Shown here: positions 8,951 through 51,373 of the stretch, piece by piece
How positions within the stretch are numbered: position 1 is the first letter of the stretch
How the letters are laid out: the number at the start of each line of letters is the position of its first letter
Origin: an archaeon
GTDB taxonomy: Archaea > Nanobdellota > Nanobdellia > Woesearchaeales > GW2011-AR9
Assembly: GCA_018696395.1 (NCBI GenBank)
Contig: JABHQR010000014.1
Span: 1 to 59,884 of the forward strand
Direction: 5' to 3'
Length of the DNA: 59,884 nucleotides
Notes under the pieces: model-generated
Seen by the model: the letters and a program-made list of their open reading frames with translations, nothing else
Told to the model about the DNA's origin: nothing
Database searches by the model: none
Made by a program: the position numbers and the translations under genes

Positions 8951-9055
8951 CATTTTATTTATTAATTAAGATATTTTTAAAATATTATTAAGTGACAGTT
9001 TATGAATTTAAAATAATCAAGATAAAAAAGTTCAATAAAAGAGGTGTGTGTTTTA

Positions 9056-31743: not shown

Positions 31744-33933
31744 ATGGCTGAAAAGATGGTTGAAAAAGTAACTAGGATTATGAAAAATCCTGAACAGATT
31801 AGAAATATTGCTATCTGTGCACATATTGACCATGGGAAAACAACTTTCTCAGATAATTTATTAGCGGGAGCAGGTATGATGAGTGAGGAACTTGCAGGTA
31901 AAGCAAGGAACTTAGATTTTCATGATGACGAAGCTGAAAGAGGGATCACAATTGATTCTGCATCAGTATCTATGGTGCATCAAGTAGGGGACAAAGAGTT
32001 TTTAATTAACTTAATTGATACTCCTGGTCACGTAGATTTTGGTGGTGACGTAACAAGAGCAATGAGAGCAGTAGATGGTGCAATTACTTTATTGTGTGCT
32101 TCTGAAGGTGCAATGCCTCAGACAGAAACTGTATTAAGACAAGCTCTTAGGGAAAAAGTTAAACCAATTTTATTCATCAATAAAGTTGATCGATTAATCA
32201 AAGAACTCCAATTAACTCCTGAACAAATGCAGCAAAGATTTATTGCACAAATTACTGAAGTTAACAAAATCATTAGGGGATTAGTTCCTGAAGAATTTAA
32301 AGATGAATGGGTTGCAAGGGTTGAAGATGGTTCTGTGGCTTTTGGTTCTGCTTTTCATAATTGGGCTTTAAGTGTGCCTTACATGAAAAAGAAAGGAATT
32401 AGTTTTAAAGATATTATCGACGCATACCAAGGCGACGACGATGAAGGGTGGAAAGCTTTAGCAAAGAAAGCACCATTACATGAAGTTGTTCTTGATATGG
32501 TAATTGGGCATCACCCAAACCCAGTGGACGCACAAAAATATAGAGTTCCTAAAATCTGGCAAGGAGATTTAGAAAGTTCTGATGGTAAGGGTTTAACCAC
32601 TTGTGATCCTAATGGAAGATTATATTTTGTAATTACTAAAGTTGTTGTTGATCCTCAAGCTGGGGAAATTGCGGCTGGTAGATTATTTTCAGGAACAATG
32701 AAGAAAGGTGAAGAAGTTTACCTTAATGTAGCTAATGTACCAGGAAGAATTCAGCAAGTTTATGTGTATAATGGTGCAAAAAGAGAAATTGTAGATAATG
32801 TGCCTGCTGGTAATATTATTGGTATTGGTGGGATGAAAGGTGGTTATCCTGGAGAAACAATTACCTCTAATGGTCCTGGGGAAGCATTTGAAAAAATTTC
32901 ACATATTTTTGAACCTGTTGTTAGTAAAGCTATTGAAGCTAAAAAACCTGCAGATTTACCAAAATTGATCGAAGTGTTAAGACAAATTCAAAAAGAAGAT
33001 CCTTCCATTAAAGTTGAAATTAATGAAGAAACAGGTGAACATTTAATGCATGGTATGGGTGAGCTACACTTAGAAATTATTGAAAATAGAATTAAAAGTG
33101 AAAAAGGTGTAGATGTAAAAACTTCTCCCCCTATTGTTGTTTACAGAGAAGCTGTAACAAGAGAGAGTGAAGAAGCCGAAGGAAAATCACCTAACAAACA
33201 CAATAGACTTTATTTTAAAGTTGAACCTTTGGATCCAGTTATTATTGAAGCAATTAAAGAGAAGAAGATTCCTCTTGGAAAATATAAAAAGAAAGAAAAT
33301 GAATTAGTTGCTTTCTTGAGAGAAGAAGCTGGATGGGATACTAAAGTTGCAAGTAAGGTTAAAGCAATAATTAATGGTAACATGTTTGTTGATTCAACAA
33401 GGGGTATTGTACACATTAATGAAATCATGGAAATGGTATTAGAAATGTTTACAGATGTAACCAAAGCTGGACCTTTAGCAAAAGAACCTTGTGTTAATAT
33501 GAAAGTTTCATTAATGGACTGTAAATTACATGAAGATGCAATTCACAGAGGCCCAGCACAATTATATCCTGCAGTAAGGGAAGGTATTAGGGCGGCTATG
33601 ATGAGTGGAGTTCCTGTACTTTATGAACCTTTACAAATTACAAGGATTGAAGCACCTAACGATTACATGGGTGAAGTTTCAAAACTAATCTCTTCAAGAA
33701 GGGGCCAGTTATTGAGTATGGATCAAGAAGGTGACATTACTGTAATCTTAGCAAAGATGCCTGTGGGTGAACTTTTCGGATGGAGTAACGATTTGAGAAG
33801 TGCAACTGGTGGTCGTGGTAACAGTAGTTTAGTAGACCAAGTGTTTGAAAGATTGCCTGGTGAATTACAAGATAAAGTTATCTCTAAGATTGTACAAAGA
33901 AAAGGTTTAAGTGAAGGTTCTTTAGGGGCTTAA
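31744..33933 (+). CDS. fusA: Elongation factor 2 (aEF-2)
   Basis: This translocation GTPase has 729 aa. The G1 loop AHIDHGKTTFSDNLLA, the G2 Thr region ERGITIDSASV, the G3 DTPGHVDFGGD and the G4 NKVDR are in place, and domains II-V follow. The diphthamide acceptor loop in domain IV reads HEDAIHRGPAQLYPAVRE with the modifiable His at about residue 601. The C-terminal LRSATGGRGNSS differs from the common archaeal LRSATQGRA form. The ATG follows GTGAGGT. The conserved His fits the presence of Dph2 pieces in the window. In many archaea infB rather than the EF-2 gene follows ndk. Confidence 0.97.
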   Translation: MAEKMVEKVTRIMKNPEQIRNIAICAHIDHGKTTFSDNLLAGAGMMSEELAGKARNLDFHDDEAERGITIDSASVSMVHQVGDKEFLINLIDTPGHVDFGGDVTRAMRAVDGAITLLCASEGAMPQTETVLRQALREKVKPILFINKVDRLIKELQLTPEQMQQRFIAQITEVNKIIRGLVPEEFKDEWVARVEDGSVAFGSAFHNWALSVPYMKKKGISFKDIIDAYQGDDDEGWKALAKKAPLHEVVLDMVIGHHPNPVDAQKYRVPKIWQGDLESSDGKGLTTCDPNGRLYFVITKVVVDPQAGEIAAGRLFSGTMKKGEEVYLNVANVPGRIQQVYVYNGAKREIVDNVPAGNIIGIGGMKGGYPGETITSNGPGEAFEKISHIFEPVVSKAIEAKKPADLPKLIEVLRQIQKEDPSIKVEINEETGEHLMHGMGELHLEIIENRIKSEKGVDVKTSPPIVVYREAVTRESEEAEGKSPNKHNRLYFKVEPLDPVIIEAIKEKKIPLGKYKKKENELVAFLREEAGWDTKVASKVKAIINGNMFVDSTRGIVHINEIMEMVLEMFTDVTKAGPLAKEPCVNMKVSLMDCKLHEDAIHRGPAQLYPAVREGIRAAMMSGVPVLYEPLQITRIEAPNDYMGEVSKLISSRRGQLLSMDQEGDITVILAKMPVGELFGWSNDLRSATGGRGNSSLVDQVFERLPGELQDKVISKIVQRKGLSEGSLGA

Positions 33934-38376: not shown

Positions 38377-38625
38377 TTATCTCCATTCACTGTGGCCAAA
38401 CGCTACAAATAAATCGAAACCTTTAACGTTTGGGATATCGCATGCACCATAACAATCTCCTGCCCAGAAAGTGATTTTAATATTTTGATATCTAGTTTTA
38501 ATTTGTTCTTGGATTTCTTTGGCTCTTGGCTTAAGTCCATCTGGAAGTTGAATTAGGATAGTATTAGGTTTACTTTTTTTAATTTCTTTATACAACTTTT
38601 CTAATTCAAGGTTAAGTTTAAGCAT
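38377..38625 (-). CDS. dph2: Split diphthamide synthase Dph2, N-terminal domain
   Basis: The 82 aa match domain 1 of archaeal Dph2, the radical-SAM-like enzyme that puts the 3-amino-3-carboxypropyl group on the EF-2 histidine. Markers are ILIQLPDGLKPRAKEI, AGDCYGACDIP with the first cluster-ligand Cys (residue 62) and the closing DLFVAFGHSE. A TAA follows directly after EWR. Nothing resembling domains 2-3 lies in the 100 bp beyond it. The missing domains with the other two ligand cysteines are encoded intact at 50092-50769. The ATG has no ribosome site and may be leaderless (AT-rich box about 30 bp upstream). I read it as one half of a split enzyme, not a relic, because both halves are open and complementary. 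Confidence 0.8.
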   Translation of the reverse strand: MLKLNLELEKLYKEIKKSKPNTILIQLPDGLKPRAKEIQEQIKTRYQNIKITFWAGDCYGACDIPNVKGFDLFVAFGHSEWR

Positions 38626-38695
38626 GTTTGTTATAGTTTAATAGTTTTTATTAAAATGTTTCTTGTTCTTTTTTAATTTTAGAAAAAATTATTAT

Positions 38696-39256
38696 TTATT
38701 TGATCAATTCTTCATAAACTTCTTTTGATTTATTGTATACTTTATCATATAAACTATTTCCTTTTGCATCTATGGAAACAATTACTGGGAAATCTTTAAC
38801 TTCAAATTCCCAAATAGCTTCTGCCATTCCAAATTCTTTTTTATATGTTGATTTAACTTTCATACTGTTGGCATACAAAACTCCTGCCCCCCCTACCGCA
38901 GATAAATATACTGCTTTACCTTTTAATGCTTCTTTGACTTCTTTGCTCATTCCACCTTTACCTATGATTGCTTTAATATTGTGCTCTTCAATTAATTGTG
39001 GTGTGTATAAACTCATTCTGTTGCTTGTTGTAGGTCCAGCAGAAATAACTTGGTTATTTTTAATTATTGGGCCACAATGATAAATTATTCCATTGTTGAT
39101 TTTAGTTCTAATGTTTTGTTCTTTCTCAGATTTTTCTAATAAAAATAGGTGTACTTTATCTCTAGCGGTGAAAATGGTTCCTGAGATTAAAATTTTATCA
39201 CCAACATTTAGTTTGATAATATCTTCAGTTTTTAATGGTGTAGTTAGTCTGATCAT
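38696..39256 (-). CDS. fumB: Class I fumarate hydratase, beta (C-terminal) subunit
   Basis: A 186-aa subunit of the two-subunit iron-sulfur fumarase. The family motifs are ISAGPTTSNRMSLY, IIGKGGMSKEV and the YLSAVGGAGVLYA loop. It closes the active site over the cluster held by the alpha subunit and converts fumarate to malate. Its ATG overlaps the alpha stop codon in TAATG, so the two are translationally coupled and probably made in equal amounts. L(+)-tartrate dehydratase shares the fold and cannot be fully excluded. Confidence 0.9.
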   Translation of the reverse strand: MIRLTTPLKTEDIIKLNVGDKILISGTIFTARDKVHLFLLEKSEKEQNIRTKINNGIIYHCGPIIKNNQVISAGPTTSNRMSLYTPQLIEEHNIKAIIGKGGMSKEVKEALKGKAVYLSAVGGAGVLYANSMKVKSTYKKEFGMAEAIWEFEVKDFPVIVSIDAKGNSLYDKVYNKSKEVYEELIK

Positions 39257-40101
39257 TATGATTTGACCTCTTCACTTAATTTTAACGTCCCTTTTCTTAA
39301 TGCCCAACATGAGATAGAAATCCCTACAAAATAAGACGCAGGGTGACTTATTGAGCTTGTAATTTTTACACCTAAACAAGTTGAGTTTCCACCTAAACCT
39401 AATGGTCCAATGTTTAATTTATTAAGTTCATTTAGTGTTTTTTTTTCTAATATCTCAAGTATTGGTGTGATATTTTTATCATCAATTTTTCTTAACAATT
39501 GTTGTTTTGAATTGTGGGCAACTTCTTCAATACAACTTCCAACCGCAACTCCAACAATGTATGGTGGACAACCTTTTCCTTGAGCTTGGAAAATTGAGTC
39601 AATGATACATTTTTTTACACCTTGTAAATTTCTATGAGCGTTAAGTTTTTGATTAGGTAATTTGTAAATTCCAGAAATATTTTCAGATCCCCCTCCTTTC
39701 AAAATCAGTTTGATCATTAGTTTATTTGGTTCGTTTGATTCTTTGAAATGAATTATTGGAACATTACCTTTATTTTCTCCTGAAATGCAGTCGACTGCGT
39801 TTGGTCTTAAAGGTACTTGTTCAGTAGCAATGTTTGTTGCTTTGATAATATCTCTAGTTAATTCTTCTTCTGTAATATTTTTTGGTCTTTTTATATAAAA
39901 AATAGGAATGCCGGTATCTTGACAAATTGGTTTTGATTCAGATTTAGCTTTTTCAAGGTTTGTTAAAATATTGTTAAGAATTTCTTTTCCAGTTGAATTA
40001 GTTTCTTTTTGATAAGCTTCTTGTAATCCTATTGTTATGTCTTCCGGAAGTTGTGTAGCAGTTTTTCTGAGAAGTTCAACTATCTGGTTAGTCAAGTCCA
40101 T
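39256..40101 (-). CDS. fumA: Class I fumarate hydratase, alpha (N-terminal) subunit
   Basis: This 281-aa subunit carries the catalytic [4Fe-4S] cluster. The three Cys ligands are in PICQDTGIP (about residue 60), KGCPPYIVG (about 178) and GGNSTCLGVK (about 240). Substrate-binding residues are in NAVDCISGENKG. No other tricarboxylic-acid-cycle gene is nearby, so it may serve amino-acid or purine metabolism (fumarate removal). The end is joined to the beta gene by TAATG. Confidence 0.92.
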   Translation of the reverse strand: MDLTNQIVELLRKTATQLPEDITIGLQEAYQKETNSTGKEILNNILTNLEKAKSESKPICQDTGIPIFYIKRPKNITEEELTRDIIKATNIATEQVPLRPNAVDCISGENKGNVPIIHFKESNEPNKLMIKLILKGGGSENISGIYKLPNQKLNAHRNLQGVKKCIIDSIFQAQGKGCPPYIVGVAVGSCIEEVAHNSKQQLLRKIDDKNITPILEILEKKTLNELNKLNIGPLGLGGNSTCLGVKITSSISHPASYFVGISISCWALRKGTLKLSEEVKS

Positions 40102-40161
40102 AAGGTTATGTTAAAATAAATAATATATAAATTTGATTGGCTTTGAGAATGTTAAACTTAT

Positions 40162-41355
40162 TTATTGGACATACTTTTTGTTAACATTAGCTTTAATCTG
40201 CTTCTCATTAATTCTAAATAAAATTGCCCCAATAATAATAATAATCCCCATCATAATAAATGCTAAAATTAAATTTTCATTAGCAATTTTACCAATGATT
40301 AACCTCATTGTAGCAAGATAAATTGATAAAATTATTGAAATTATTGATAATACTGTTGCTCGATTATGACTTTCAATATGGTCATTCTGGTACTGTGAAA
40401 AAAGTGGGTCTCTTAAATTCATTGATCCTTTAAGGAGTATGAAAGTTAACAAGGAAATAATTGGTCCAACGAAAAAAGCCATAATTAAATATAGTATTCC
40501 TGGAAAAATTGTTGCTATAAATATTGTTAGATTCATACCAAGTTTTTTTTCAATCAAATAAGCATATTTCATTAGTATTGCTCCTAAAGTCATTCCAATT
40601 GCTAATGTAACTCCCCATAATGAATTTTGTACTGTTGCCATTAAAAAGTATGGTTGAAAAAGAAAAAGTAGTATGTGGGTGAATGGTTCAGTTAATATAA
40701 GGAGATAGATTATTCTTCTAAGTGATTTGTTTCTTAAAACTTGAATTGAAGAATCTTTAAACAAAATTAAGGGATTAACTTCTTTTATTTTTTTGTGATG
40801 TTTTCTTTCTGTGATAAATAATGAAATTATTAATGATATTATGGATCCAATTGTAAACATCCAGATAAGTAGTACAAACGTTTCTGGTTCATGGCTTCTG
40901 GCAATATACCCTCCAACTGTTACAGCGATAACACATGCAACTAAAGAATATGAATTAATTGATCCCCATACTTTACTCATCTCTTTTTCTCTTTTTTGAA
41001 ATTTAAGTGTGTCATAAACTAATGCTTCTACTGCACCTGAACCAAATGCGATCCCAATACCAAACAAAATCTGTATGGTCATAAATTCAAAGTAAGTTTG
41101 AGCATAAATTGTCCAAATATTACCAATTATGTAAAATATAATTAATGATGTTAAAGATAATTTTCGGCTAATTTTGTCTGCAATAATTCCAGTTGGTAAT
41201 TCTGCAAGTAATACTGCAATTATTAACACTGCTTCAAGTGAAATTACTTGAAATGTGTCTAAACCTCTTGAGAAGTAAAATAAGGTAATAATCGGTGAGA
41301 AGAAAAATAATGATTTGAAAAAATAAACCCATTTAAGTTTAGTAATGTTGTTCAT
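40162..41355 (-). CDS. Major facilitator superfamily transporter
   Basis: This 397-aa protein has 12 predicted membrane segments in two halves. The loop between segments 2 and 3 reads GIIADKISRK, the MFS signature. The later central cytoplasmic loop is basic (ITERKHHKK). It resembles drug- or sugar-efflux MFS proteins. The substrate is unknown. There is no gene beside it that would show its cargo. Confidence 0.85.
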   Translation of the reverse strand: MNNITKLKWVYFFKSLFFFSPIITLFYFSRGLDTFQVISLEAVLIIAVLLAELPTGIIADKISRKLSLTSLIIFYIIGNIWTIYAQTYFEFMTIQILFGIGIAFGSGAVEALVYDTLKFQKREKEMSKVWGSINSYSLVACVIAVTVGGYIARSHEPETFVLLIWMFTIGSIISLIISLFITERKHHKKIKEVNPLILFKDSSIQVLRNKSLRRIIYLLILTEPFTHILLFLFQPYFLMATVQNSLWGVTLAIGMTLGAILMKYAYLIEKKLGMNLTIFIATIFPGILYLIMAFFVGPIISLLTFILLKGSMNLRDPLFSQYQNDHIESHNRATVLSIISIILSIYLATMRLIIGKIANENLILAFIMMGIIIIIGAILFRINEKQIKANVNKKYVQ

Positions 41356-41522
41356 TCATTTTGAAAATTGTTAGCTGTTTAAATAAATTACTTTGTAAAT
41401 CTAGCTTTGATATGCGAAAACTATTTAAATCAAAAAATACTTCTAAAGTAAAGATGATTGATTTTTAGAACTAATCTAAAATTAAAATTAAATGAAAAAC
41501 TTAAAAAAGAGGTAGATTAAAA

Positions 41523-42434
41523 ATGGGATGGTTTAGTGGAAGTATAAAGAAAGTAATGCGGGCAGCACAAAAAAGACATGCAGTTCCTTTAAACAAAGCA
41601 AGAAAAATTGATGTTCAATTAGAAAATGCTTTGACTGCGATTCAGGACAAGTATAAACATTCAACAAATAATGAGGGTGTACAACTTCAAGCCGCTATGA
41701 GGGCTTTTTATAGTAGGGTCAGTGTTGTAAAACATATAGAAAGAGATTTAGTATCTATGGCTGAGGATATTGCAGTTGATGAAAAAGTTGTAAACCAATT
41801 ACTTGGGTTACAAAAGTTTGCTAATTCAACTTGGCTCCTTCTTGAGAAAGATTTTAAAGATACCTATCGAGATTTTAAAAGGATGAAGAAGAAATGGGAT
41901 CTGACAAGTGAAGTTTCAGAACAAAGACGATATGTAGATCAGCAACTTAATGATTTAAAAGTACTTATCCCTAAGTTGGAATTAGCATTAAGTTCTACAC
42001 AAAGTGCAATGGAATCAGGTGGAGAATTCCACGGTAGAAATCATGATACTACTACTAGGACTAATCGAGTTATTGAATTAGAAAATTCAATTAAAGAAGC
42101 TAAAAGGTATATTGCGCAACTTCTTGCAGCAAGGGCTTCAACTAAGTTAGCTTCAGATTTAGGTATTGAATTATATGATTATTGGAAAAATTTAACTGTG
42201 AAATTGGATAAGCATGAATTACCTTCAATTAGTTTCTTAAGTGATAAGAAGCATAAGAAAGAAATTGAAAATATGAGAAAATTAATTGATCAAGAACTTG
42301 CTTCAATCATGATGGCTATGAAAGAGTTAAATGATGAGTTGGTACTATTTGAAAGTATTGGTGTTGAAGTTCTTTCAAAATCAAGAAAAAGAAGACTTGT
42401 TAGATCAATCCAACAATTAGCTATGGAACAATAA
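41523..42434 (+). CDS. Helical cytoplasmic protein of unknown function
   Basis: This 303-aa protein is mostly alpha-helical and rich in Lys, Glu, Gln and Ala with heptad-like stretches (about 120-170 and 235-300). It starts with a short hydrophobic or amphipathic segment, GWFSGSIKKVMRAAQKRH, which could touch the membrane. I do not recognise a family. The pattern is reminiscent of ESCRT-III/PspA-like helical proteins, but the evidence is weak. A TTTAAATC promoter box precedes it and AAAGAGGT is the ribosome site. Confidence 0.65.
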   Translation: MGWFSGSIKKVMRAAQKRHAVPLNKARKIDVQLENALTAIQDKYKHSTNNEGVQLQAAMRAFYSRVSVVKHIERDLVSMAEDIAVDEKVVNQLLGLQKFANSTWLLLEKDFKDTYRDFKRMKKKWDLTSEVSEQRRYVDQQLNDLKVLIPKLELALSSTQSAMESGGEFHGRNHDTTTRTNRVIELENSIKEAKRYIAQLLAARASTKLASDLGIELYDYWKNLTVKLDKHELPSISFLSDKKHKKEIENMRKLIDQELASIMMAMKELNDELVLFESIGVEVLSKSRKRRLVRSIQQLAMEQ

Positions 42435-42501
42435 TTGTTTCTTTTTTTTAATTATTTTTATTTTATGACAAAGAATTATGTCTGGTAATTTTATTATTTA
42501 A

Positions 42502-43578
42502 TTATTCAATTAATCTTAAATAAGGAATTTCTATTTGTTCAGGTAAGTCTTCTTGTATAGAAAAATCTAATGAACCAACTGCTTTAGATAAACTTTCTCC
42601 TAAATTTTTCATGTGAAAATAAGTTCCAACTTCATATATTAGGAAGTTTATCATTGAAGGAGATACGTGTCCTTTATTAGCTGTTTGAAATAATGTTTCT
42701 TTCATATTTTCTTCTGTTTCAAATTGGTCTAGGTCTGTTCCATCTAAAAAAGCTAATAATGGGATACAATTACTTAGTCTGATGTAAACATCTCCATTTG
42801 TTCTAAATTTATTACTTTTATGTTCTGGGATGATAATCTCTTCAATTTCAGAACGATTATAAGATTTTGGTGTACCTAATTCTTTACAAACCCTTTCATC
42901 TTCTGAATCACTTGGACTATGAAAATATTTACAGTAATCATAAATTACTGAACCTAATGATTCATATAAAAATTTATTACTGTACTGGTCAATGAAATTT
43001 TCTGCACATAGCCTGTCTTCAAAATAAAGTTCAAGGATACCTGCCATTCCTGTTGATTGGTTTTCTAAATTATCTACTTGAATTAAATCTGTTTGTTTAT
43101 TAGTATCATTTCCTTTAGAAGCTTCAATAAAATCTCCAATGGTATAACCAGTATCATAGTAACCTAACTCTTCAACTTTACCACTTCCACCTTTTAGTAT
43201 GAAATCAATAATACTTTCTAACTTATCTGCTCTAATTAGGTTTGAACTATCAATTTTACTTGTAATTAAATAGTTGTTATCATTGAAAGGATAGTTATCA
43301 TTCCTTTTTAATTTATTATTGAAATAATTTTTAATTATATCAAAGATGTTTGAGAAAATATTTTTACTTTTATTTTTTTCAATGAGAACTTCATTTTTAA
43401 CACTTGAGTTAAATGTGCTTTCTGAATAACTTTCTATTGGATTATTTTTTGGAGGGTATGTTAAAATTTTGTTTCCAACACTTAATGTTGTTTTTCTATT
43501 TTTTAAATCTGGTTTTGAACTTTGACTTTTAGTTTCATTTACCTTAAAATAATCTTTTAAATTAACTACTTCTGCCAT
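42502..43578 (-). CDS. Hypothetical protein
   Basis: A 358-aa protein with a low-complexity, Asn/Ser/Lys-rich first third (about 1-110) and a more ordered part from about 120 on. I recognise no domain, signal peptide or membrane segment. The TATA-like element on this strand (around 43601-43613) is 25-35 bp before the ATG, so the message may be leaderless. It has good coding character, but function cannot be assigned. Confidence 0.6.
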   Translation of the reverse strand: MAEVVNLKDYFKVNETKSQSSKPDLKNRKTTLSVGNKILTYPPKNNPIESYSESTFNSSVKNEVLIEKNKSKNIFSNIFDIIKNYFNNKLKRNDNYPFNDNNYLITSKIDSSNLIRADKLESIIDFILKGGSGKVEELGYYDTGYTIGDFIEASKGNDTNKQTDLIQVDNLENQSTGMAGILELYFEDRLCAENFIDQYSNKFLYESLGSVIYDYCKYFHSPSDSEDERVCKELGTPKSYNRSEIEEIIIPEHKSNKFRTNGDVYIRLSNCIPLLAFLDGTDLDQFETEENMKETLFQTANKGHVSPSMINFLIYEVGTYFHMKNLGESLSKAVGSLDFSIQEDLPEQIEIPYLRLIE

Positions 43579-43672
43579 CTTGGTATTAGTAATGTGGGTT
43601 TCTTTATAAATACTTTCTTTTATTGTTACTCAAACGTAGAAACAAACAACAAATTTCAAGGTATTTGGGAAA

Positions 43673-43735
43673 ATGAGCGGTATCTTAGCTTCTCATAAAC
43701 AGAAAAGGTTAAAAAGGGTAAATCAAGTGTTTTAA
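43673..43735 (+). CDS. Possible 20-aa basic leader peptide before the RimB-like gene
   Basis: An ATG gives a 20-codon frame (MSGILASHKQKRLKRVNQVF) ending 6 bp before the next start. A GGGAAA lies just ahead of the ATG. It may be chance or a coupling peptide; there is no further support. Confidence 0.2.
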   Translation: MSGILASHKQKRLKRVNQVF

Positions 43736-43741
43736 GTTAAT

Positions 43742-44083
43742 ATGATAAACCGGAGAGTGTTAGGTTTAACTGAAGAAATAGTTGTAATTGGTAATGAAAA
43801 CCAAAATTTAACTGTTAGAATAGATACTGGTGCCACTTGTTCTTCAATTGATATTAAATTAGCAGAGAAATTAGGTTGGGGTCCAGTAGTAAGAAATAGG
43901 ATCGTTAAATCTGCGAGTGGAATTAAAAAAAGAGAAATGGTTAAAGGTGAAGTGGTAATTCAAGGATTACAATTAGATGGGGAATTTACTTTAGCTGATC
44001 GATCTCATATGACTTACCCAATACTTATTGGGCAGAACATTTTGAAAGAAGGAATGTTTTTAGTTGATCCAATGAAAGATTAA
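43742..44083 (+). CDS. RimB-like retropepsin-type aspartic protease (ATP-dependent zinc protease family)
   Basis: This 113-aa protein has the single-lobed aspartic protease pattern: VRIDTGATCSSID (catalytic DTGA near residues 29-32), the flap region and the hydrophobic YPILIGQNILK near the end. In bacteria RimB-type proteins act with RimK glutamate ligase and trim the polyglutamate tails it makes. Here a RimK gene follows after 57 bp, so the pairing is preserved. It should be a homodimer, since one lobe is encoded. Confidence 0.85.
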   Translation: MINRRVLGLTEEIVVIGNENQNLTVRIDTGATCSSIDIKLAEKLGWGPVVRNRIVKSASGIKKREMVKGEVVIQGLQLDGEFTLADRSHMTYPILIGQNILKEGMFLVDPMKD

Positions 44084-44140
44084 AAATTAAAATATTATTA
44101 ATTATAATTAAAATAAACTATAACAGAGATGATGTAATAT

Positions 44141-45226
44141 ATGAAAGCTGCAATAATTTCGTTAGGAAGTGTAAGTTCACAAATGGTAGTTGAAGCTATG
44201 AAATCTTATTTTGATCAAGTAGATATGATCCAGTTAAGAGAAATTGAAGTGGATTTAGGGAAGGATTCTGGTGTTTATTATCAAGGAAAAAAGTTTCCTG
44301 ATTATGATTGTGTGTATGTTAAAGGATCATTTAGGTATGCTAATTTACTTTGTTCTATTTCTAGCATGTTAGAGGGGAAAGTTGCTTATTTACCTTTACC
44401 TTCATCAGCATTTACTGTCGTTCATAATAAACTTTTAACTCATCTAGCATTAGAACAACATAACATCCCTATGCCTAGAACTTATGTTAGTCCAAATGTT
44501 GATACTGCTAAAGCTTTATTGAAAAAAGTAAGTTATCCTATTGTAATGAAGTTTCCAGAAGGAACTCAAGGTAAGGGTGTGATGTTTGCGGATTCAGAAT
44601 CTTCTGCTTCTTCAATGTTAGATGCTTTAGGGGCTTTGAACCAACCATTTATTGTTCAAGAATATGTTGAGTCTGGTGGTACGGATGTTAGAGCATTAGT
44701 TGTCGGGGATAATGTTGTAGCAGCTATGAGGAGAAGGTCTAAAGCTGGGGAAAAGAGAGCTAATATTCATGCTGGTGGTACTGGTGAACCAGTAACACTT
44801 AATAGGGAAACATTTAATCTGGCAGTAAAAACTTCTAAAGCTTTAGGTGCTGATGTTTGTGGTGTGGATATTTTAGAAGGTCCATTGGGCCCAGTTGTGA
44901 TTGAAGCTAATATCTCTCCAGGGTTACAAGGGTTAAGTCAAGTTTCAACTATCGATATCCCTAAGGAAATAGCTAAACATTTTGCAAGAAAAACTAAAGA
45001 ATTTTTGGCACATAAAAAAATGTTGGGTGGCAAAGAAGTTATGAAAGAATTAGATATTGATTCTTTAGATAATAACCCTCAGGAATTAATAACTACTTTG
45101 AAATTTAAAGGTAATTGTGTTGTAATTCCAGAAGTGATGTCAAAACTTGCTAAACTTAATGAGTTTGATAATTATTTGATCAAAGTTAAGAAAGGCAGGA
45201 TTGAAATTGAAGAGTTTAAGATCTGA
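44141..45226 (+). CDS. rimK: RimK-family ATP-grasp glutamate ligase
   Basis: The ATP-grasp domain occupies about residues 95-285: VVHNKLLTHLALEQHNIPMP, PIVMKFPEGTQGKGV, FIVQEYVESGGTDVRALVVG, RANIHAGGTGEPV and GPVVIEANISPGLQG. These enzymes attach glutamate to ribosomal protein S6 in bacteria, or to coenzyme F420 or sarcinapterin in archaea. The last 75 residues are an added domain with an AbrB-like VVIPEVMSKLAKL strand-turn-strand. The preceding gene is a RimB-like protease. The acceptor substrate is open. Confidence 0.88.
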   Translation: MKAAIISLGSVSSQMVVEAMKSYFDQVDMIQLREIEVDLGKDSGVYYQGKKFPDYDCVYVKGSFRYANLLCSISSMLEGKVAYLPLPSSAFTVVHNKLLTHLALEQHNIPMPRTYVSPNVDTAKALLKKVSYPIVMKFPEGTQGKGVMFADSESSASSMLDALGALNQPFIVQEYVESGGTDVRALVVGDNVVAAMRRRSKAGEKRANIHAGGTGEPVTLNRETFNLAVKTSKALGADVCGVDILEGPLGPVVIEANISPGLQGLSQVSTIDIPKEIAKHFARKTKEFLAHKKMLGGKEVMKELDIDSLDNNPQELITTLKFKGNCVVIPEVMSKLAKLNEFDNYLIKVKKGRIEIEEFKI

Positions 45227-45242
45227 ATAAGATGATTATTAA

Positions 45243-45980
45243 TTATTTCCTTCGAGTTAGTTTACAAATATCTAAATCAATAAAGTAGATCTCTCTTTGT
45301 GGTGTCATAATCAAGTTTCTTGGTTTAATATCTCTAGCAATAATTCCTTTATGGTATAAATCAAATTTAATATTTTCAATAATCTGTTTATTTTTTGGAT
45401 TATCTTTTTCATGAACCATTAATTCTCTTCCAGGGATATATTCTTTTAGAATTGCATAATGTGAACAATCTCCCCAACATGCACCTAAGTCAATAATTAA
45501 TTTTGGGATTCTTGGAACACTTTCTAAAATACTTAATAATTCTGATTCTAATTGGGTCTGGCCAGTTGGCGGAGAATAATATGCTTTGGCAAACTTTTCT
45601 CCAAATTCACTACAAAATTTCTTTTTAGGTTCAAAAACATTTTGATATTCTTGGCCAAACATAGAAACTAAATTTTTCTTTCTTTCTTTTAATTCAGAAC
45701 GTTTATCTTCTGATAATCTTTTTTCATCAACTTTATCAATTTTTAAAATATAATTCTTTCCTTTAATATTTACTTGATAAACTTTACAACTGCCTTTAAA
45801 CTCTTTAATAACTTCTAAATGTAAACCTAACTGGTAAGGTAAGTCATTATTACTATGGTTATTTGTTAAATTTGGTTTATTATTCAAATCATAGATAATA
45901 TCTTCTATGTTATCAATGGGCCTGATTAAATTAATTTGATCATTAGGTTCAAAATTATGTTCTAATTGGTTTAAAATCAT
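45243..45980 (-). CDS. Protein-kinase-like (RIO/ABC1-type fold) protein
   Basis: This 245-aa protein has kinase-fold landmarks: YILKIDKVDE with the ATP-binding Lys, the hinge ILKEYIPGREL, the catalytic loop HKGIIARDIKPRNLIM (with ARD for HRD, Asp retained) and FIDLDICKL as the DFG equivalent (DLD). The glycine-rich loop is not clear, as in atypical kinases. The substrate is unknown. It converges on rimK with a 16-bp gap. Confidence 0.72.
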   Translation of the reverse strand: MILNQLEHNFEPNDQINLIRPIDNIEDIIYDLNNKPNLTNNHSNNDLPYQLGLHLEVIKEFKGSCKVYQVNIKGKNYILKIDKVDEKRLSEDKRSELKERKKNLVSMFGQEYQNVFEPKKKFCSEFGEKFAKAYYSPPTGQTQLESELLSILESVPRIPKLIIDLGACWGDCSHYAILKEYIPGRELMVHEKDNPKNKQIIENIKFDLYHKGIIARDIKPRNLIMTPQREIYFIDLDICKLTRRK

Positions 45981-46065
45981 ATTTTAATTAGAAATAAGTC
46001 TGTTTTATAAATATTAGTGAGATTACTTCTGATAAGTGGTTAAACTGAATATTGTGGTGAGTGAG

Positions 46066-46701
46066 TTAATATTCAATTCCTCTTCTTGCTGGTACGCCTT
46101 TGTCAAAGTAATGTTTTTCTGCACGCATTTCTGTGACTAAATCTGCCATTTCCATTATTTCAATGGGAGCGCCTCTACCGGTAAGAACAATTTCAATATG
46201 TTTCGGTTTATTTGCCATTAAATTAAGTACGAGTTCGGTGTTAAGTAATCCTATAGACATGGCAGTATTGATTTCGTCAAGAATAACTAATGGGTAATTT
46301 CCACTCATAACTATCTCTAATGTTTTTTTGAATGCTTCTTCGACATAATCTTTTTGTATATCGTCGTTTAAGAAGCAATATCTACAAGTACTACATTCTA
46401 TCTCTTCACGAACATAATCAAACAACTTTTTGTTTTTATCTTCATTACTTAATTTGTAAAATCCTTGGATTTTCAATTGTTTCTGTTGTTTAACACAAGG
46501 TCTTCCAAATTGGACAATTTCAAAATTAGGTATGAAATTTTTAGCTGCGACATATTCACCTGTGTATGCTCCTCCTTTCATATATTGTATCATAAATACA
46601 TTGAACCCTTGACCTGCAGAACGTAAGGCTAAACCTAAAGAAGCAGTAGTTTTACCTTTTCCTTCACCTGTATAAACATGAACTAATCCTTGGTGTTTCA
46701 T
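46066..46701 (-). CDS. cobO: Corrinoid ATP adenosyltransferase (CobO/BtuR type) with Cys insert
   Basis: This enzyme makes adenosylcobalamin. The P-loop VYTGEGKGKTTASLGLALRS (residues about 9-28), IQYMKGG and LVILDEINTAM match the family. An insertion of about 35 residues contains CSTCRYCFLNDD, a cysteine cluster (CxxCxxC) not usual in CobO, which may hold a metal or serve in redox. The gene lies 52 bp behind the B12-dependent ribonucleotide reductase on the same strand, so its product would directly supply that enzyme's cofactor. Confidence 0.88.
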   Translation of the reverse strand: MKHQGLVHVYTGEGKGKTTASLGLALRSAGQGFNVFMIQYMKGGAYTGEYVAAKNFIPNFEIVQFGRPCVKQQKQLKIQGFYKLSNEDKNKKLFDYVREEIECSTCRYCFLNDDIQKDYVEEAFKKTLEIVMSGNYPLVILDEINTAMSIGLLNTELVLNLMANKPKHIEIVLTGRGAPIEIMEMADLVTEMRAEKHYFDKGVPARRGIEY

Positions 46702-46753
46702 TTTTATATTTTGAAATATTTATTTGATAATTTATTATTTGATTTTAATTATC

Positions 46754-48787
46754 TTAAAATCTTGAATTTAATACTTGTAAGTCTTTACTTCCATCTCGAT
46801 AAATTGTAATCCCTTTACATCCTAATTTGTATGCTAGTAAGAATATCTCTTTAACATCTTCAACAGTAGAATAGTAGGGGATATTTACTGTTTTTGAAAT
46901 GGCACCATCAACATGTCTTTGAAATGCAGCTTGCATTCTAACATGTTCTTCTGGGCTAAGATCCATTGAAGTTAAAAAAATTCTTTTGATATGTTTTGGT
47001 ATGCCTTCAACATTTTGTAATGAACCTGCTTTTGCAATATTTTTCATTAAATCTTCATCATAAAATCCTTCTTCTCTAGCAACTTTTTCAAATAATGGAT
47101 TAACTTCTAATAATTCATATTGTGAAGTTTTTCTTAAATAAGATAAAGCAAATAATGGTTCGATGCTTGGTGAACATGATGCTATGATTGATAATGTCCC
47201 AGTTGGGGAGATTGCAGTTTTGGTAGCATTTCTTACTCTGTGATATTCATTATTGTTATCATATAATGACCCTTCAAAATTAGGAAATATTCCTCTCTTT
47301 TTTGCAAGGTCACAACTTGCTGCACGAGCCTCATCATTAATAAATTTCATAACAGTGTCTGCATAATTTAATGCTTCTTGGGAATTGTATGGTATTTTTA
47401 ATTTAACTAACATATCTGCCCAACCCATAATCCCCAGTCCAAACTTCCTGTTACCTTTGACAATGTTTCTTGTTTTGGTAAGGTGGAAATTGTTGGCTTC
47501 AATTGCATTGTCCATAAAATGTACTGCGGAATGAACTGTCCCCTTAAGTTTATCCCAATAAACTTCTGTACGATTAATTTCTTCTCCTTGAATAATATGT
47601 TTTGATAAATTAATTGAACCTAAAATTACTGATTCGTATGGTAACATTGGTTGTTCTCCACAAGGACTAGTAGTTTCAATAATACCCAATTTTGGTGTAG
47701 GGTTACTTCTTTCATTATTCATTCTGTCTAAGAAAACAATTCCAGGATCACCATTTTTCCAAGCCATAGTGGAGATTAGATCTAATGTTCTTTTAGCATT
47801 TAATTGACCAATCGGTTTATTATCTCTTGGATTTATTAAATCATAATTCTGTTCATTTTGTAAAGCTTCCATGAATCTGTTTGTTAATCCAATTGATAAG
47901 TTGAAATTGGTAATGACTTCTTGACTTTCTTTACATGTGATAAAATCTAATATGTCTGGATGGTCAACCCTAAGAATTGCCATATTAGCTCCGGCCCTTC
48001 TTCCACCTTGTTTGATTTCACTTAATGCTTTATCATAAATTTTTAAGAAAGCTAGTGGTCCTGAAGAAACCCGTAATAGGTTGTTAACCCTATCTGCTCT
48101 TGGTCTTATTCTTGAAAATGAAAAACCAGTTCCACCTCCACGTTGATGAATTATAGCTGCATCTTTCAGAGCGTTAAAAATACTCTCAGTTGAATCTTTT
48201 ATGGGTAAACAGAATACAGAAGATAGTTGGCCATTAATGTTTCCTGCATTCATTAACATTGGTGAATTAGGTAAAAATTCTAAGTTTAACATTAAATTAA
48301 GAAACTTTTCTTTAACTACTTCATAATCTCCTCCAAATTGTTCTTCAGCTAAAGCAATATGGCTAGCAACTCTTTCGAACATGCCTTTTGGAGTTTCTAT
48401 GATTTTTCCAGTTTTATCTCGGTTTAAGTATCTAGTTTCAATAATTTTAAATGAGTTAATTCCTAACTTACAATCATCAATAACTCCACTAGAGGCTTTA
48501 ACATCACGTAACTCTTTCCTTTTTTGTCTGTAAAGAATAAAACTTTTTGCAACTTTACTATGTCCTTCTTCCATTAATATTTTTTCAATAAGGTCTTGAA
48601 CAATTTCTACATTAATCGCTTCTTCTTCCATTAAAAAGATGTAATCTTGGACTAATCCTGCCAGTTCTGAAGCTAAATTTTCGTTTTTCTCCCCTGTTGA
48701 AAGAATTGCTTTATAGATTGCAGTAGTAATTTTACCAGGATCATAATCTATGACCTCTCCAGTTCTTTTCTTTATTTTAATGGGCAT
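46754..48787 (-). CDS. nrdJ: Adenosylcobalamin-dependent (class II) ribonucleoside-diphosphate reductase
   Basis: This 677-aa enzyme makes deoxyribonucleotides. An ATP-cone occupies about residues 1-95, then the barrel follows with NSPMLMNAG, VFCLPIKDS (first redox Cys), GGGTGFSFSRIR, the thiyl-radical site TSPCGEQPMLPYE, AISPTGTLSIIA and KGITIYRDGSKDLQVL. The protein stops just after that segment. Most class II enzymes have a further C-terminal tail with a CxxC or zinc motif that reduces the active site, and this is missing. A separate reductant, such as a thioredoxin, may act directly. Confidence 0.93.
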   Translation of the reverse strand: MPIKIKKRTGEVIDYDPGKITTAIYKAILSTGEKNENLASELAGLVQDYIFLMEEEAINVEIVQDLIEKILMEEGHSKVAKSFILYRQKRKELRDVKASSGVIDDCKLGINSFKIIETRYLNRDKTGKIIETPKGMFERVASHIALAEEQFGGDYEVVKEKFLNLMLNLEFLPNSPMLMNAGNINGQLSSVFCLPIKDSTESIFNALKDAAIIHQRGGGTGFSFSRIRPRADRVNNLLRVSSGPLAFLKIYDKALSEIKQGGRRAGANMAILRVDHPDILDFITCKESQEVITNFNLSIGLTNRFMEALQNEQNYDLINPRDNKPIGQLNAKRTLDLISTMAWKNGDPGIVFLDRMNNERSNPTPKLGIIETTSPCGEQPMLPYESVILGSINLSKHIIQGEEINRTEVYWDKLKGTVHSAVHFMDNAIEANNFHLTKTRNIVKGNRKFGLGIMGWADMLVKLKIPYNSQEALNYADTVMKFINDEARAASCDLAKKRGIFPNFEGSLYDNNNEYHRVRNATKTAISPTGTLSIIASCSPSIEPLFALSYLRKTSQYELLEVNPLFEKVAREEGFYDEDLMKNIAKAGSLQNVEGIPKHIKRIFLTSMDLSPEEHVRMQAAFQRHVDGAISKTVNIPYYSTVEDVKEIFLLAYKLGCKGITIYRDGSKDLQVLNSRF

Positions 48788-48891
48788 GAGTGTGTAAAAT
48801 ATATCTTCATTTATATAATTTTTAGTTGTGTGGTGGTTATATCAACAATCTTTGTAATAAACCTTAAATAAAACGCTTCTCTTTGGAATTT

Positions 48892-49434
48892 ATGTTACTT
48901 TTACTTAAGGCATTGTACTTTTTTTTACCAGCATATTTTGCTAACATGGCTCCAGTAATTTTCAAGAAAGTTCCAGTACTTAGTAAGCCAATAAGTAAGA
49001 AATTGTTTGGAAAGAACAAAACCTGGCGAGGATTAGTGAGTGCAGTGTTGGTTGGATTTTTAGTTTATCTTGTCCAAGTTTTATTATATCGATTTAGTTT
49101 GGTTGGAAACGGTTTTTTTTGGATTTTTTTACAAGAGATATCTTTAATTAATTATTTAGAATACTCATTATTGTTAGGTTTTTTTTTATCTTTAGGGGCA
49201 ATACTTGGTGATATTTTTGAAAGCTATATCAAAAGAAAGTTAGGGTTTAAGCCAGGTCAGTCTTGGTTTCCATTTGACCAATTAGATTTTGTAGTGGGGG
49301 CGTTGTTATTATCTATGTTAATTTATTTTCCAGATGTATTGACAATAATTCTGTTATTATCAATCAGTCCATTGTTACACCTAACGATTAATTATGTTGC
49401 TTATTTTTTGGGTATAAGGGAAGTTAAATACTAA
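48892..49434 (+). CDS. carS: CDP-archaeol synthase
   Basis: This membrane enzyme activates archaetidic-type lipid (unsaturated archaetidic acid) with CTP, the step before polar head groups are added. The CarS features are FGKNKTWRG near residue 40, LGAILGDIFESYIKRKLGFK and SWFPFDQLDFVVGAL. There are about five membrane segments. I use the ATG at 48892, where the conserved N terminus begins; a TTG at 48883 would add three residues. It marks the organism as making archaeal ether lipids. The convergent neighbour is the matching CDP-alcohol transferase. Confidence 0.92.
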   Translation: MLLLLKALYFFLPAYFANMAPVIFKKVPVLSKPISKKLFGKNKTWRGLVSAVLVGFLVYLVQVLLYRFSLVGNGFFWIFLQEISLINYLEYSLLLGFFLSLGAILGDIFESYIKRKLGFKPGQSWFPFDQLDFVVGALLLSMLIYFPDVLTIILLLSISPLLHLTINYVAYFLGIREVKY

Positions 49435-49451
49435 TCATTTGGTGTTAATTA

Positions 49452-50051
49452 TTAAATTTTGAATTTCTTTTTTAGATAATATTCTCCTTGAGACATTAGT
49501 GAATATAATGAAATCGCTCCGATTGTTAAGTAAGTTGCTATGGCAAGGAAATTAACTGAAATCAAAGGGCCTAAAACAAAAAGAATAATCAAAGCTGTTG
49601 TTCTAGAAAACATAACTGGACTTTTCATATCACTAATCAAATGAATTGATTGTGTTAATACAAATATTGCTCCAATGATAATAATATAATAATCTCCTAA
49701 TATGAAGAATATCCTTACCAGAATTGCAAGAGTTATTAACCTATCAATAGTTGAATCTAAATATTTCCCGAATTCACTTTCAGTGCTTTTAATTCTGGCA
49801 ATAACCCCATCAAAACTGTCAGCTAGAAGGTGGATTATCATAAACAATAGGGATAGTAAGTAATTGTCAAATAAATAATAAGCTCCAATAATACCTGATA
49901 ATAAAGATAATGTGCTCATTAGTGAAGCATTAACTTTTAATTTAATTAGGAACTTAGCAGGTTTGTTTAATATCTTGTCTCTCACTTTTCTAGTTTTTTC
50001 TATCCCATTAGTAACGAATGAATCCATGGTAAAATATATAAAGTGGGCCAT
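49452..50051 (-). CDS. CDP-alcohol phosphatidyltransferase family protein
   Basis: This 199-aa membrane enzyme swaps the CMP of CDP-archaeol for a polar head group. The full family motif D..DG..AR........G...D...D is present as DSFDGVIARIKSTESEFGK followed by YLDSTIDR. There are about five or six membrane segments. Inositol phosphate, serine or glycerol phosphate could be the acceptor. The ATG at 50051 lies about 22-25 bp behind an ATATATTTA box and may be leaderless; an ATG at 50027 is the alternative. It stands tail-to-tail with carS, the preceding step of lipid synthesis. Confidence 0.9.
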   Translation of the reverse strand: MAHFIYFTMDSFVTNGIEKTRKVRDKILNKPAKFLIKLKVNASLMSTLSLLSGIIGAYYLFDNYLLSLLFMIIHLLADSFDGVIARIKSTESEFGKYLDSTIDRLITLAILVRIFFILGDYYIIIIGAIFVLTQSIHLISDMKSPVMFSRTTALIILFVLGPLISVNFLAIATYLTIGAISLYSLMSQGEYYLKKKFKI

Positions 50052-50091
50052 ATAAAAAACTTACTGTAAATATATTATCAGGGGCATTACT

Positions 50092-50769
50092 ATGAAAAGA
50101 TTATTTATTGAAACTAAGTATCAAGGAGATTTAGGGTTAACCAGTCAGTTACTGAAAGAACTTTTAAACAGGTTAAGTAATACTAAATCTGTTACTCTTG
50201 CTTGTAGTGTTCAATATTTAGATTATTTGTCTGAAATAAAATCTGTTCTTGAGGCAAATGGTAAATATGTTAAATTATATCAAAGTAAGCATGGTAAATA
50301 TCCTGGCCAAGTACTTGGTTGTGATATTCATTTGTTTAATAAAGTTGAAACTTTTCTTTACTTAGGTGATGGTTTATTTCATCCCAGTGCACTAGCATAT
50401 TCTCATCAAATTGACATTATTATACTTAATCCAATGTCCAAGAAAGTTGAACTGTTTGATAAAGAGTATTGGTTTAGGGCTAAGAAAAGAAAAAATGCTT
50501 TACTTGCTAAATTGATCACTTATGATGATGTGGGCGTGTTAGTAACTTCAAAGCCAGGTCAAAATCAAAGTAAAACTATTGATTTATTGAGATTAAAATT
50601 GGAAGAAAAGGGGAAAAATGTTTTTGTTTTTATTGGTGATAATATTAATACTTCTAAACTTGAAGATTTTAATTTTGTTGATGTTTGGATTAATTCTGCT
50701 TGCCCTAGGATTATTGAAGATTTTCCATGTTTAAATTTTGATGACTTAAAAGAAATTGAATATTTCTAA
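50092..50769 (+). CDS. dph2: Split diphthamide synthase Dph2, domains 2-3
   Basis: The 225 aa align with archaeal Dph2 from just after domain 1 to its end. The second cluster-ligand Cys is in PGQVLGCDIH (residue 77), YLGDGLFHPSALAYS and GVLVTSKPGQNQS follow, and the third ligand Cys is in WINSACPRIIED (residue 204), with LNFDDLKEIEYF at the end. The first domain, with the first Cys, is missing and is encoded at 38377-38625. Together the pieces give 307 aa, close to a normal archaeal Dph2. A CAGGGGC site lies 8 bases before the ATG, so this half is translated from its own start. Confidence 0.85.
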   Translation: MKRLFIETKYQGDLGLTSQLLKELLNRLSNTKSVTLACSVQYLDYLSEIKSVLEANGKYVKLYQSKHGKYPGQVLGCDIHLFNKVETFLYLGDGLFHPSALAYSHQIDIIILNPMSKKVELFDKEYWFRAKKRKNALLAKLITYDDVGVLVTSKPGQNQSKTIDLLRLKLEEKGKNVFVFIGDNINTSKLEDFNFVDVWINSACPRIIEDFPCLNFDDLKEIEYF

Positions 50770-50935: not shown

Positions 50936-51373
50936 ATGGCAAAAGCTGAAACTGTTGCAAAAACAGGAATTAAGAAAGAAACTGGTTACCTTTACTTTAT
51001 TGATAAGAAAGGTCACGTATCAAGGGCTATCATGAGCCGAGCTGGACGAACTAAAGGTAAGTCCAAGAAGGAAGTTGTTGCTAAAATTGGTATCGACAAG
51101 GAATCTGGTTACCTATACTTTATTGATAAGAAAGGTAATGTATGTCGGGCTAAGATGGCTAGAGGGAGAAAAGCAGGTAAGAAAAAAGTAGCTAAAAGGA
51201 AAGTTGTTAAGAAAAAAGTTACTAAGAAAAAAGTAGTGAAAAAGAAAGTAGCTAAGAAAAAGCCTGTAAAGAAAAAAGTAACTAAAAAGAAAGTTGTTAA
51301 GAAAAAAGCAGTTAAGAAGAAAGTAGTAAAAAAGAAAGCAACTAAGAAAAAAGTTACTAAAAAGAAAAAGTAA
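50936..51373 (+). CDS. Lys-rich protein with two GYLYFIDKKG repeats and a histone-H1-like tail
   Basis: The 145-aa protein has two copies of a unit of the form GIxKExGYLYFIDKKGxVxRAxM (about residues 11-36 and 51-76). The remaining tail consists almost entirely of KKKV/KKKT/KKKA pentads, like the tail of bacterial histone-H1-like proteins. Strong positive charge suggests DNA or RNA binding, perhaps nucleoid compaction. The aromatic GYLYFID units are short and may each form a beta-hairpin. I know of no characterised function. The TATA box, hairpin and GAGGTG site suggest strong expression. Confidence 0.8.
   Translation: MAKAETVAKTGIKKETGYLYFIDKKGHVSRAIMSRAGRTKGKSKKEVVAKIGIDKESGYLYFIDKKGNVCRAKMARGRKAGKKKVAKRKVVKKKVTKKKVVKKKVAKKKPVKKKVTKKKVVKKKAVKKKVVKKKATKKKVTKKKK

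What the first reader, a model, noticed from the sequence alone, without database searches (positions are those of the whole stretch)
38377..50769. Diphthamide synthase Dph2 is split into two separate genes
An 82-aa gene (38377-38625, minus) covers Dph2 domain 1 with the first cluster Cys (YGACD, residue 62). A 225-aa gene (50092-50769, plus) covers domains 2-3 with the other two ligands (LGCD, residue 77; ACPR, residue 204). The break falls just after the GHS motif of domain 1, and the summed length of 307 aa is near that of a normal archaeal Dph2. The second half has its own ribosome site. Both frames are open and the catalytic features are complementary, so the pieces may assemble in trans into one enzyme. 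Archaeal Dph2 is normally a single polypeptide that forms a homodimer; a fission between domains would make the working unit a heterotetramer.
Basis: partly seen in the sequence, partly recalled or inferred. Interest (0 to 1): 0.85.

Follow-up and report, generated by a model that had tools for sequence, protein, structure and literature searches.

The report
Split diphthamide synthase in DPANN archaeon
An archaeon of the Nanoarchaeota group makes the enzyme Dph2, which starts the diphthamide modification of elongation factor 2, from two separate genes; the split is real, very widespread in this phylum and already reported in the literature, so this is one more case of a known kind.

Summary
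Two open reading frames, 38377-38625 (-) and 50092-50769 (+), match complementary parts of the Dph2 profile. They carry the three [4Fe-4S] cysteines between them, and the 98.9% complete genome has no other Dph2. Dph5, an AsnB-fused Dph6 and an EF-2 with the diphthamide histidine are all present.

The same two-piece Dph2 is the rule in this phylum. Of 80 genomes sampled, 62 have both halves as separate frames, 7 have only a one-piece gene, 10 show one half only and 1 shows none. All 55 pairs examined keep the three cysteines.

It lies inside domain 1: the last strand of domain 1 (KRLFIETK) starts the second protein. In a model of that chain alone this strand is unfolded, which fits assembly by strand complementation.

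Phylogeny gives one fission. Scattered genes look like the older state, with head-to-tail pairs arising once inside that clade.

Novelty is low. A split DPH2 was tabulated for nanoarchaeon Nst1 in 2013, and split Dph1/2 was reported for Woesearchaeota, Pacearchaeota, Parvarchaeota and Altiarchaeota (Narrowe 2018, cited in Dombrowski 2019). Function as an N2C2 complex remains inferred.

The parts
38377..38625 (-). dph2-N: 82-aa protein with domain 1 of Dph2 without its last strand; first cluster ligand Cys62 in YGACD, ends ...GHSEWR
   Evidence: PF01866 positions 1-56, TIGR00322 62 bits, PDB Dph2 6q2d E=2.4e-8, model matches Dph2 structures
38440..38442 (-). codon of Cys62, first [4Fe-4S] ligand
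   Evidence: invariant in 143 aligned Dph2 rows
50092..50769 (+). dph2-C: 225-aa protein with last strand of domain 1 plus domains 2 and 3; lacks much of the C-terminal tail of full-length Dph2
   Evidence: PF01866 positions 65-270, 126 bits, PDB Dph2 6q2d E=4.2e-23, alignment A1, model TMq 0.84 to 6q2d
50092..50115 (+). residues 1-8 MKRLFIET: last beta strand of domain 1, carried on the far side of the break
   Evidence: aligns with PILYVEA of full-length proteins; not a strand and pLDDT 66 in the isolated chain
50320..50322 (+). codon of Cys77 (LGCD), second cluster ligand
   Evidence: invariant in 143 aligned rows
50701..50703 (+). codon of Cys204 (ACPR), third cluster ligand
   Evidence: invariant in 143 aligned rows
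31744..33933 (+). EF-2, the substrate, with His601 in DAIHRGPAQ, about 4.4 kb from dph2-N
   Evidence: TIGR00490 1030 bits; sequence

Best explanation
This is a working Dph2 encoded by two genes. The 82-aa protein provides domain 1 and the first cluster cysteine. The 225-aa protein provides the last strand of domain 1, domains 2 and 3 and the other two cysteines. The halves most likely pair by strand complementation inside domain 1, so that the three cysteines bind one [4Fe-4S] cluster, and two such pairs form an N2C2 version of the normal homodimer that transfers the 3-amino-3-carboxypropyl group of SAM to His601 of EF-2. Shown here: homology, complementary ligands, absence of another copy, conservation across the phylum and presence of Dph5, Dph6 and the EF-2 histidine. 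Inferred: physical assembly, stoichiometry and activity.
For: The halves hit complementary, non-overlapping parts of one profile and the same PDB chains. They are the only PF01866 matches in a 98.9% complete genome. Sixty-two of 80 phylum genomes have both halves as separate open frames, and where the junction was read it is at the same place. All three Cys are invariant in 55 split pairs. Dph5 scores 305 bits and Dph6 210 bits in the same genome. EF-2 keeps DAIHRG. All split pairs in the careful tree form one clade, bootstrap 100, SH-aLRT 99. The strand that starts the C-half is conserved in sequence but unfolded in the isolated-chain model.
Against: No co-fold or biochemistry was possible. 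In the 80-genome sample 10 genomes show only one half and one shows none, some at 100% estimated completeness, so a minority may do without a complete enzyme or have assembly gaps. The split proteins evolve fast and have lost much of the C-terminal tail.
Confidence: 0.87

Rival explanations
1. The halves are remnants of a decaying dph2 and no diphthamide is made.
For: Some relatives show only one half or none; long branches in the split clade.
Against: Both frames stay open and all three Cys are invariant in 55 pairs over many families; Dph5 and Dph6 are kept in the window's genome and Dph6 in most relatives; EF-2 keeps its His.
Confidence: 0.05
2. One or both halves work alone or in a different job, for example as a partner of another radical enzyme, rather than pairing into one Dph2.
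For: Genes are on opposite strands 11.5 kb apart in the window; the N-half lies near EF-2 and S10 while the C-half does not.
Against: Neither half holds all cluster ligands; head-to-tail N-C neighbours in 28 genomes tie the two functionally; the C-half carries an orphan strand of domain 1.
Confidence: 0.05
3. The halves are joined after translation or transcription, by a split intein or RNA trans-splicing, into one chain.
For: Split inteins join DNA polymerase halves in Nanoarchaeum equitans (general knowledge).
Against: The N-half has only 4 residues after the conserved GH and the C-half starts right at the strand, leaving no room for intein segments. RNA trans-splicing was not tested.
Confidence: 0.02

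Closest known systems
Split DPH2 of nanoarchaeon Nst1 (Nst 222-440), Podar et al. 2013, PMC3655853
   Same: Diphthamide synthase encoded by two genes in a Nanoarchaeota genome
   Different: Table entry only in the text read; break position not given there and not compared here
Split Dph1/2 of Woesearchaeota, Pacearchaeota, Parvarchaeota and Altiarchaeota, Narrowe et al. 2018, as cited in Dombrowski et al. 2019, PMC6349945
   Same: Same split, same wider lineage; very likely the same clade
   Different: Original paper not held, so its break position and species could not be compared
Single-chain archaeal Dph2 (PDB 3lzd, 6bxm, 6q2d)
   Same: Same fold by sequence and model, same three cysteines
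   Different: One chain, homodimer, longer C-terminal tail
Eukaryotic Dph1-Dph2 heterodimer
   Same: Diphthamide step one carried by two gene products
   Different: Two full-length paralogues, not two fragments of one chain (established knowledge, not tested here)

Membership tests
Archaeal Dph2 (PF01866, TIGR00322, TIGR03682/arCOG04112) | Sequence match over the whole profile | tested here: met
   By the two proteins together: positions 1-56 and 65-270 of 302 in PF01866, 3-63 and 75-278 of 308 in TIGR03682. Neither alone reaches the equivalog cut-off of 202.8 bits.
Archaeal Dph2 (PF01866, TIGR00322, TIGR03682/arCOG04112) | Three conserved Cys, one per domain | tested here: met
   Cys62, Cys77 and Cys204 at the invariant columns
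Archaeal Dph2 (PF01866, TIGR00322, TIGR03682/arCOG04112) | Single polypeptide | tested here: not met
   Two genes on opposite strands 11.5 kb apart, no full-length copy
Archaeal Dph2 (PF01866, TIGR00322, TIGR03682/arCOG04112) | Dph2 fold | tested here: met
   Models of each half match only Dph2 structures at E<=0.001
Archaeal Dph2 (PF01866, TIGR00322, TIGR03682/arCOG04112) | Binds [4Fe-4S], cleaves SAM to an ACP radical, modifies EF-2 His | not testable with these tools
   Needs protein chemistry or mass spectrometry
Published split Dph1/2 of DPANN archaea | Dph2 encoded by two separate genes in a DPANN genome | tested here: met
   Window genome and 62 of 80 genomes of its phylum; named phylum members are Woesearchaeota, Pacearchaeota and Nanoarchaeota MAGs
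Published split Dph1/2 of DPANN archaea | Same break site as published cases | not tested
   Narrowe 2018 not held; Nst1 genes not retrieved

The most novel reading that the evidence does not exclude
An enzyme of the non-canonical radical SAM class works as an N2C2 complex whose cluster ligands come from two chains that share a single sheet by strand complementation, and its genes first scattered and later came back together as a head-to-tail pair without re-fusing.
Probability: 0.5. Interest if true: 0.5.

Novelty: new member of a known kind. Interest (0 to 1): 0.33.

Why it matters
It shows that a broadly conserved iron-sulfur enzyme of translation can persist through a large radiation as two fragments, and it offers natural split pairs for testing how the [4Fe-4S] site of Dph2 is assembled. 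The work here adds three things to what the literature read here says: the break is inside domain 1, there was probably one origin, and the scattered order is probably the older one.

Tried and rejected
A hidden full-length dph2: none in the genome. Assembly or frameshift artefact: the same break recurs in tens of independent genomes. Split intein: no room at the junction. Relic of the missing strand after the N-half stop: translations in three frames show none; the strand is at the start of the C-half itself. Stop-codon readthrough: five relatives (G008, G013, G015, G021, G081) have the halves in one frame around a single stop; with 28 neighbouring pairs such cases are expected, and most pairs overlap or use other frames. 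Independent fissions: not supported, all split pairs form one clade. Whether the one-piece Nanoarchaeota genes and the split genes descend from one Dph2 of the phylum stays open (AU p=0.057). Narrowe 2018 is not held.

Full report
What is there. The 82-aa frame hits PF01866 at profile positions 1-56 and the 225-aa frame at 65-270; TIGR00322 gives 62 and 120 bits. Both find the three solved archaeal Dph2 proteins. The window is one whole contig of a genome of 1.38 Mb, 98.86% complete.

Pathway context. The same genome has Dph5 (305 bits) and Dph6 (210 bits). Dph6 is the C-terminal part of a 760-aa protein with a class II glutamine amidotransferase (MCGIVGFFG start) and an asparagine-synthetase domain. 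This fusion was described in 2012 for a few archaea as a possible source of ammonia (PMC3541065). EF-2 lies in the window at 31744-33933 and keeps DAIHRGPAQ, His601. The setting is that of a complete diphthamide pathway.

How common it is. In 60 close relatives PF01866 hits come in two pieces almost everywhere. In an even sample of 80 genomes of the phylum, by my count from the list, 62 have both halves as separate frames, 7 have only a one-piece gene, 10 show one half only and 1 shows none. One of the 62, G110, has the split pair and also a one-piece gene, all on the same contig. More sensitive searches with alignments of the halves recovered some missing pieces but not all. Named records with one-piece Dph2 in this lineage are Woesearchaeota, Pacearchaeota and Nanoarchaeota metagenome assemblies. 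Two of them have contigs of the same lengths as G073 and G114 and identical Dph2 sequence, which places the window in Nanoarchaeota in the wide sense.

Where the break is. In one-piece relatives the junction reads, for example, GHAPFVKIDFPILYVYV or GHASFMKVDFPILYIEA. In split genomes the first protein ends GHSEWR or GHNPFHKKEGW and the second begins M-K-x-LFIEAKY. The missing piece is a loop only. The C-half therefore begins with the strand that corresponds to PILYIEA, which belongs to domain 1 (domain assignment from the published Dph2 structures, general knowledge), and the break is inside domain 1 rather than between domains. An AlphaFold2 model of the C-half alone (mean pLDDT 88) leaves residues 1-17 without secondary structure, with mean pLDDT 66 over residues 1-10 and 78 over 11-20, while the rest matches Dph2 (TM 0.84 to 6q2d). 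The N-half model (pLDDT 81) also matches Dph2 first. A strand conserved in sequence but unfolded alone is what one expects if it completes the sheet of the other chain. This supports assembly in trans but does not prove it. The split C-halves also lack much of the tail that follows ACPR in one-piece proteins.

Cluster ligands. In an alignment of 55 split pairs and 88 one-piece proteins all three cysteines are invariant.

History. A careful tree of 64 joined sequences puts all its split pairs in one clade (bootstrap 100, SH-aLRT 99) apart from the one-piece Nanoarchaeota genes, which form their own clade (100/95) (a quick tree of 103 rows agrees). Head-to-tail pairs form one sub-clade (100/94) nested among genomes with scattered halves. 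A tree with the scattered ones as one clade is rejected weakly (AU p=0.025), and the bootstrap had not fully settled. So the simplest history is one fission, dispersal, then one return to adjacency. The alternative, adjacency first with many dispersals, needs many more changes but cannot be excluded, because dispersal is easier than return. In the window's own family the C-half of scattered genomes and the N-C pair of the others occupy the same slot, between an archaetidylinositol-phosphate-synthase-like gene and a lysine-rich gene, although the C-halves belong to different branches. In several scattered genomes the N-half lies near S10 or EF-2 (window, G003, G006, G018, G092, G059).

What is known. 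Podar et al. 2013 list 'Diphthamide synthase sub. DPH2, Nst 222-440' among split genes (PMC3655853). Dombrowski et al. 2019 write that Dph1/2 is split in some Parvarchaeota, Pacearchaeota, Woesearchaeota and Altiarchaeota, citing Narrowe et al. 2018 (PMC6349945). The headline of the finding is therefore published. I did not find a description of the intradomain break, the single origin or the order of events, but Narrowe 2018 itself could not be read.

Verdict. Real, functional by every sequence criterion tested, widespread and known. What remains open is biochemical: that the two chains form one cluster site and modify EF-2.

Noticed in passing
G000:C22:1898-4177 (L087): Dph6 of the same genome is fused behind a class II glutamine amidotransferase and asparagine-synthetase domain (760 aa); long Dph6 frames of similar size are common in relatives. 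Fusion type known since 2012.
   Followed up: partly
L131, L132, L133 (G110:C1): One relative carries both a one-piece dph2 and a complete split pair on the same contig, all with the cluster cysteines: a natural case of two diphthamide synthases in one archaeon.
   Followed up: partly
window 50936-51373: 145-aa protein with two copies of a KxGIxKExGYLYFIDKKGxVxRA motif and a histone-H1-like lysine-rich tail, no Pfam or NCBIfam match, conserved next to the Dph2 C-half in the family.
   Followed up: partly
window 9044-16798: 2584-aa frame with no Pfam or NCBIfam match.
   Followed up: no
L004, L003, L005, L008, L117: In five relatives the two halves are in one frame around a single stop codon, the second start lying at or next to the stop.
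   Followed up: partly
genomes G060, G065, G066, G075, G107, G003 (N only); G062, G063, G105 (C only); G010 (none): Some nearly complete relatives show only one half of Dph2, and one shows none although its EF-2 keeps the histidine and Dph6 is present; gaps or real loss cannot be told apart.
   Followed up: partly
window 48883-50051 and relatives: The chromosomal slot next to CDP-archaeol synthase and the phosphotransferase holds two different split-Dph2 branches in related genera, either as C-half alone or as an N-C pair.
   Followed up: partly
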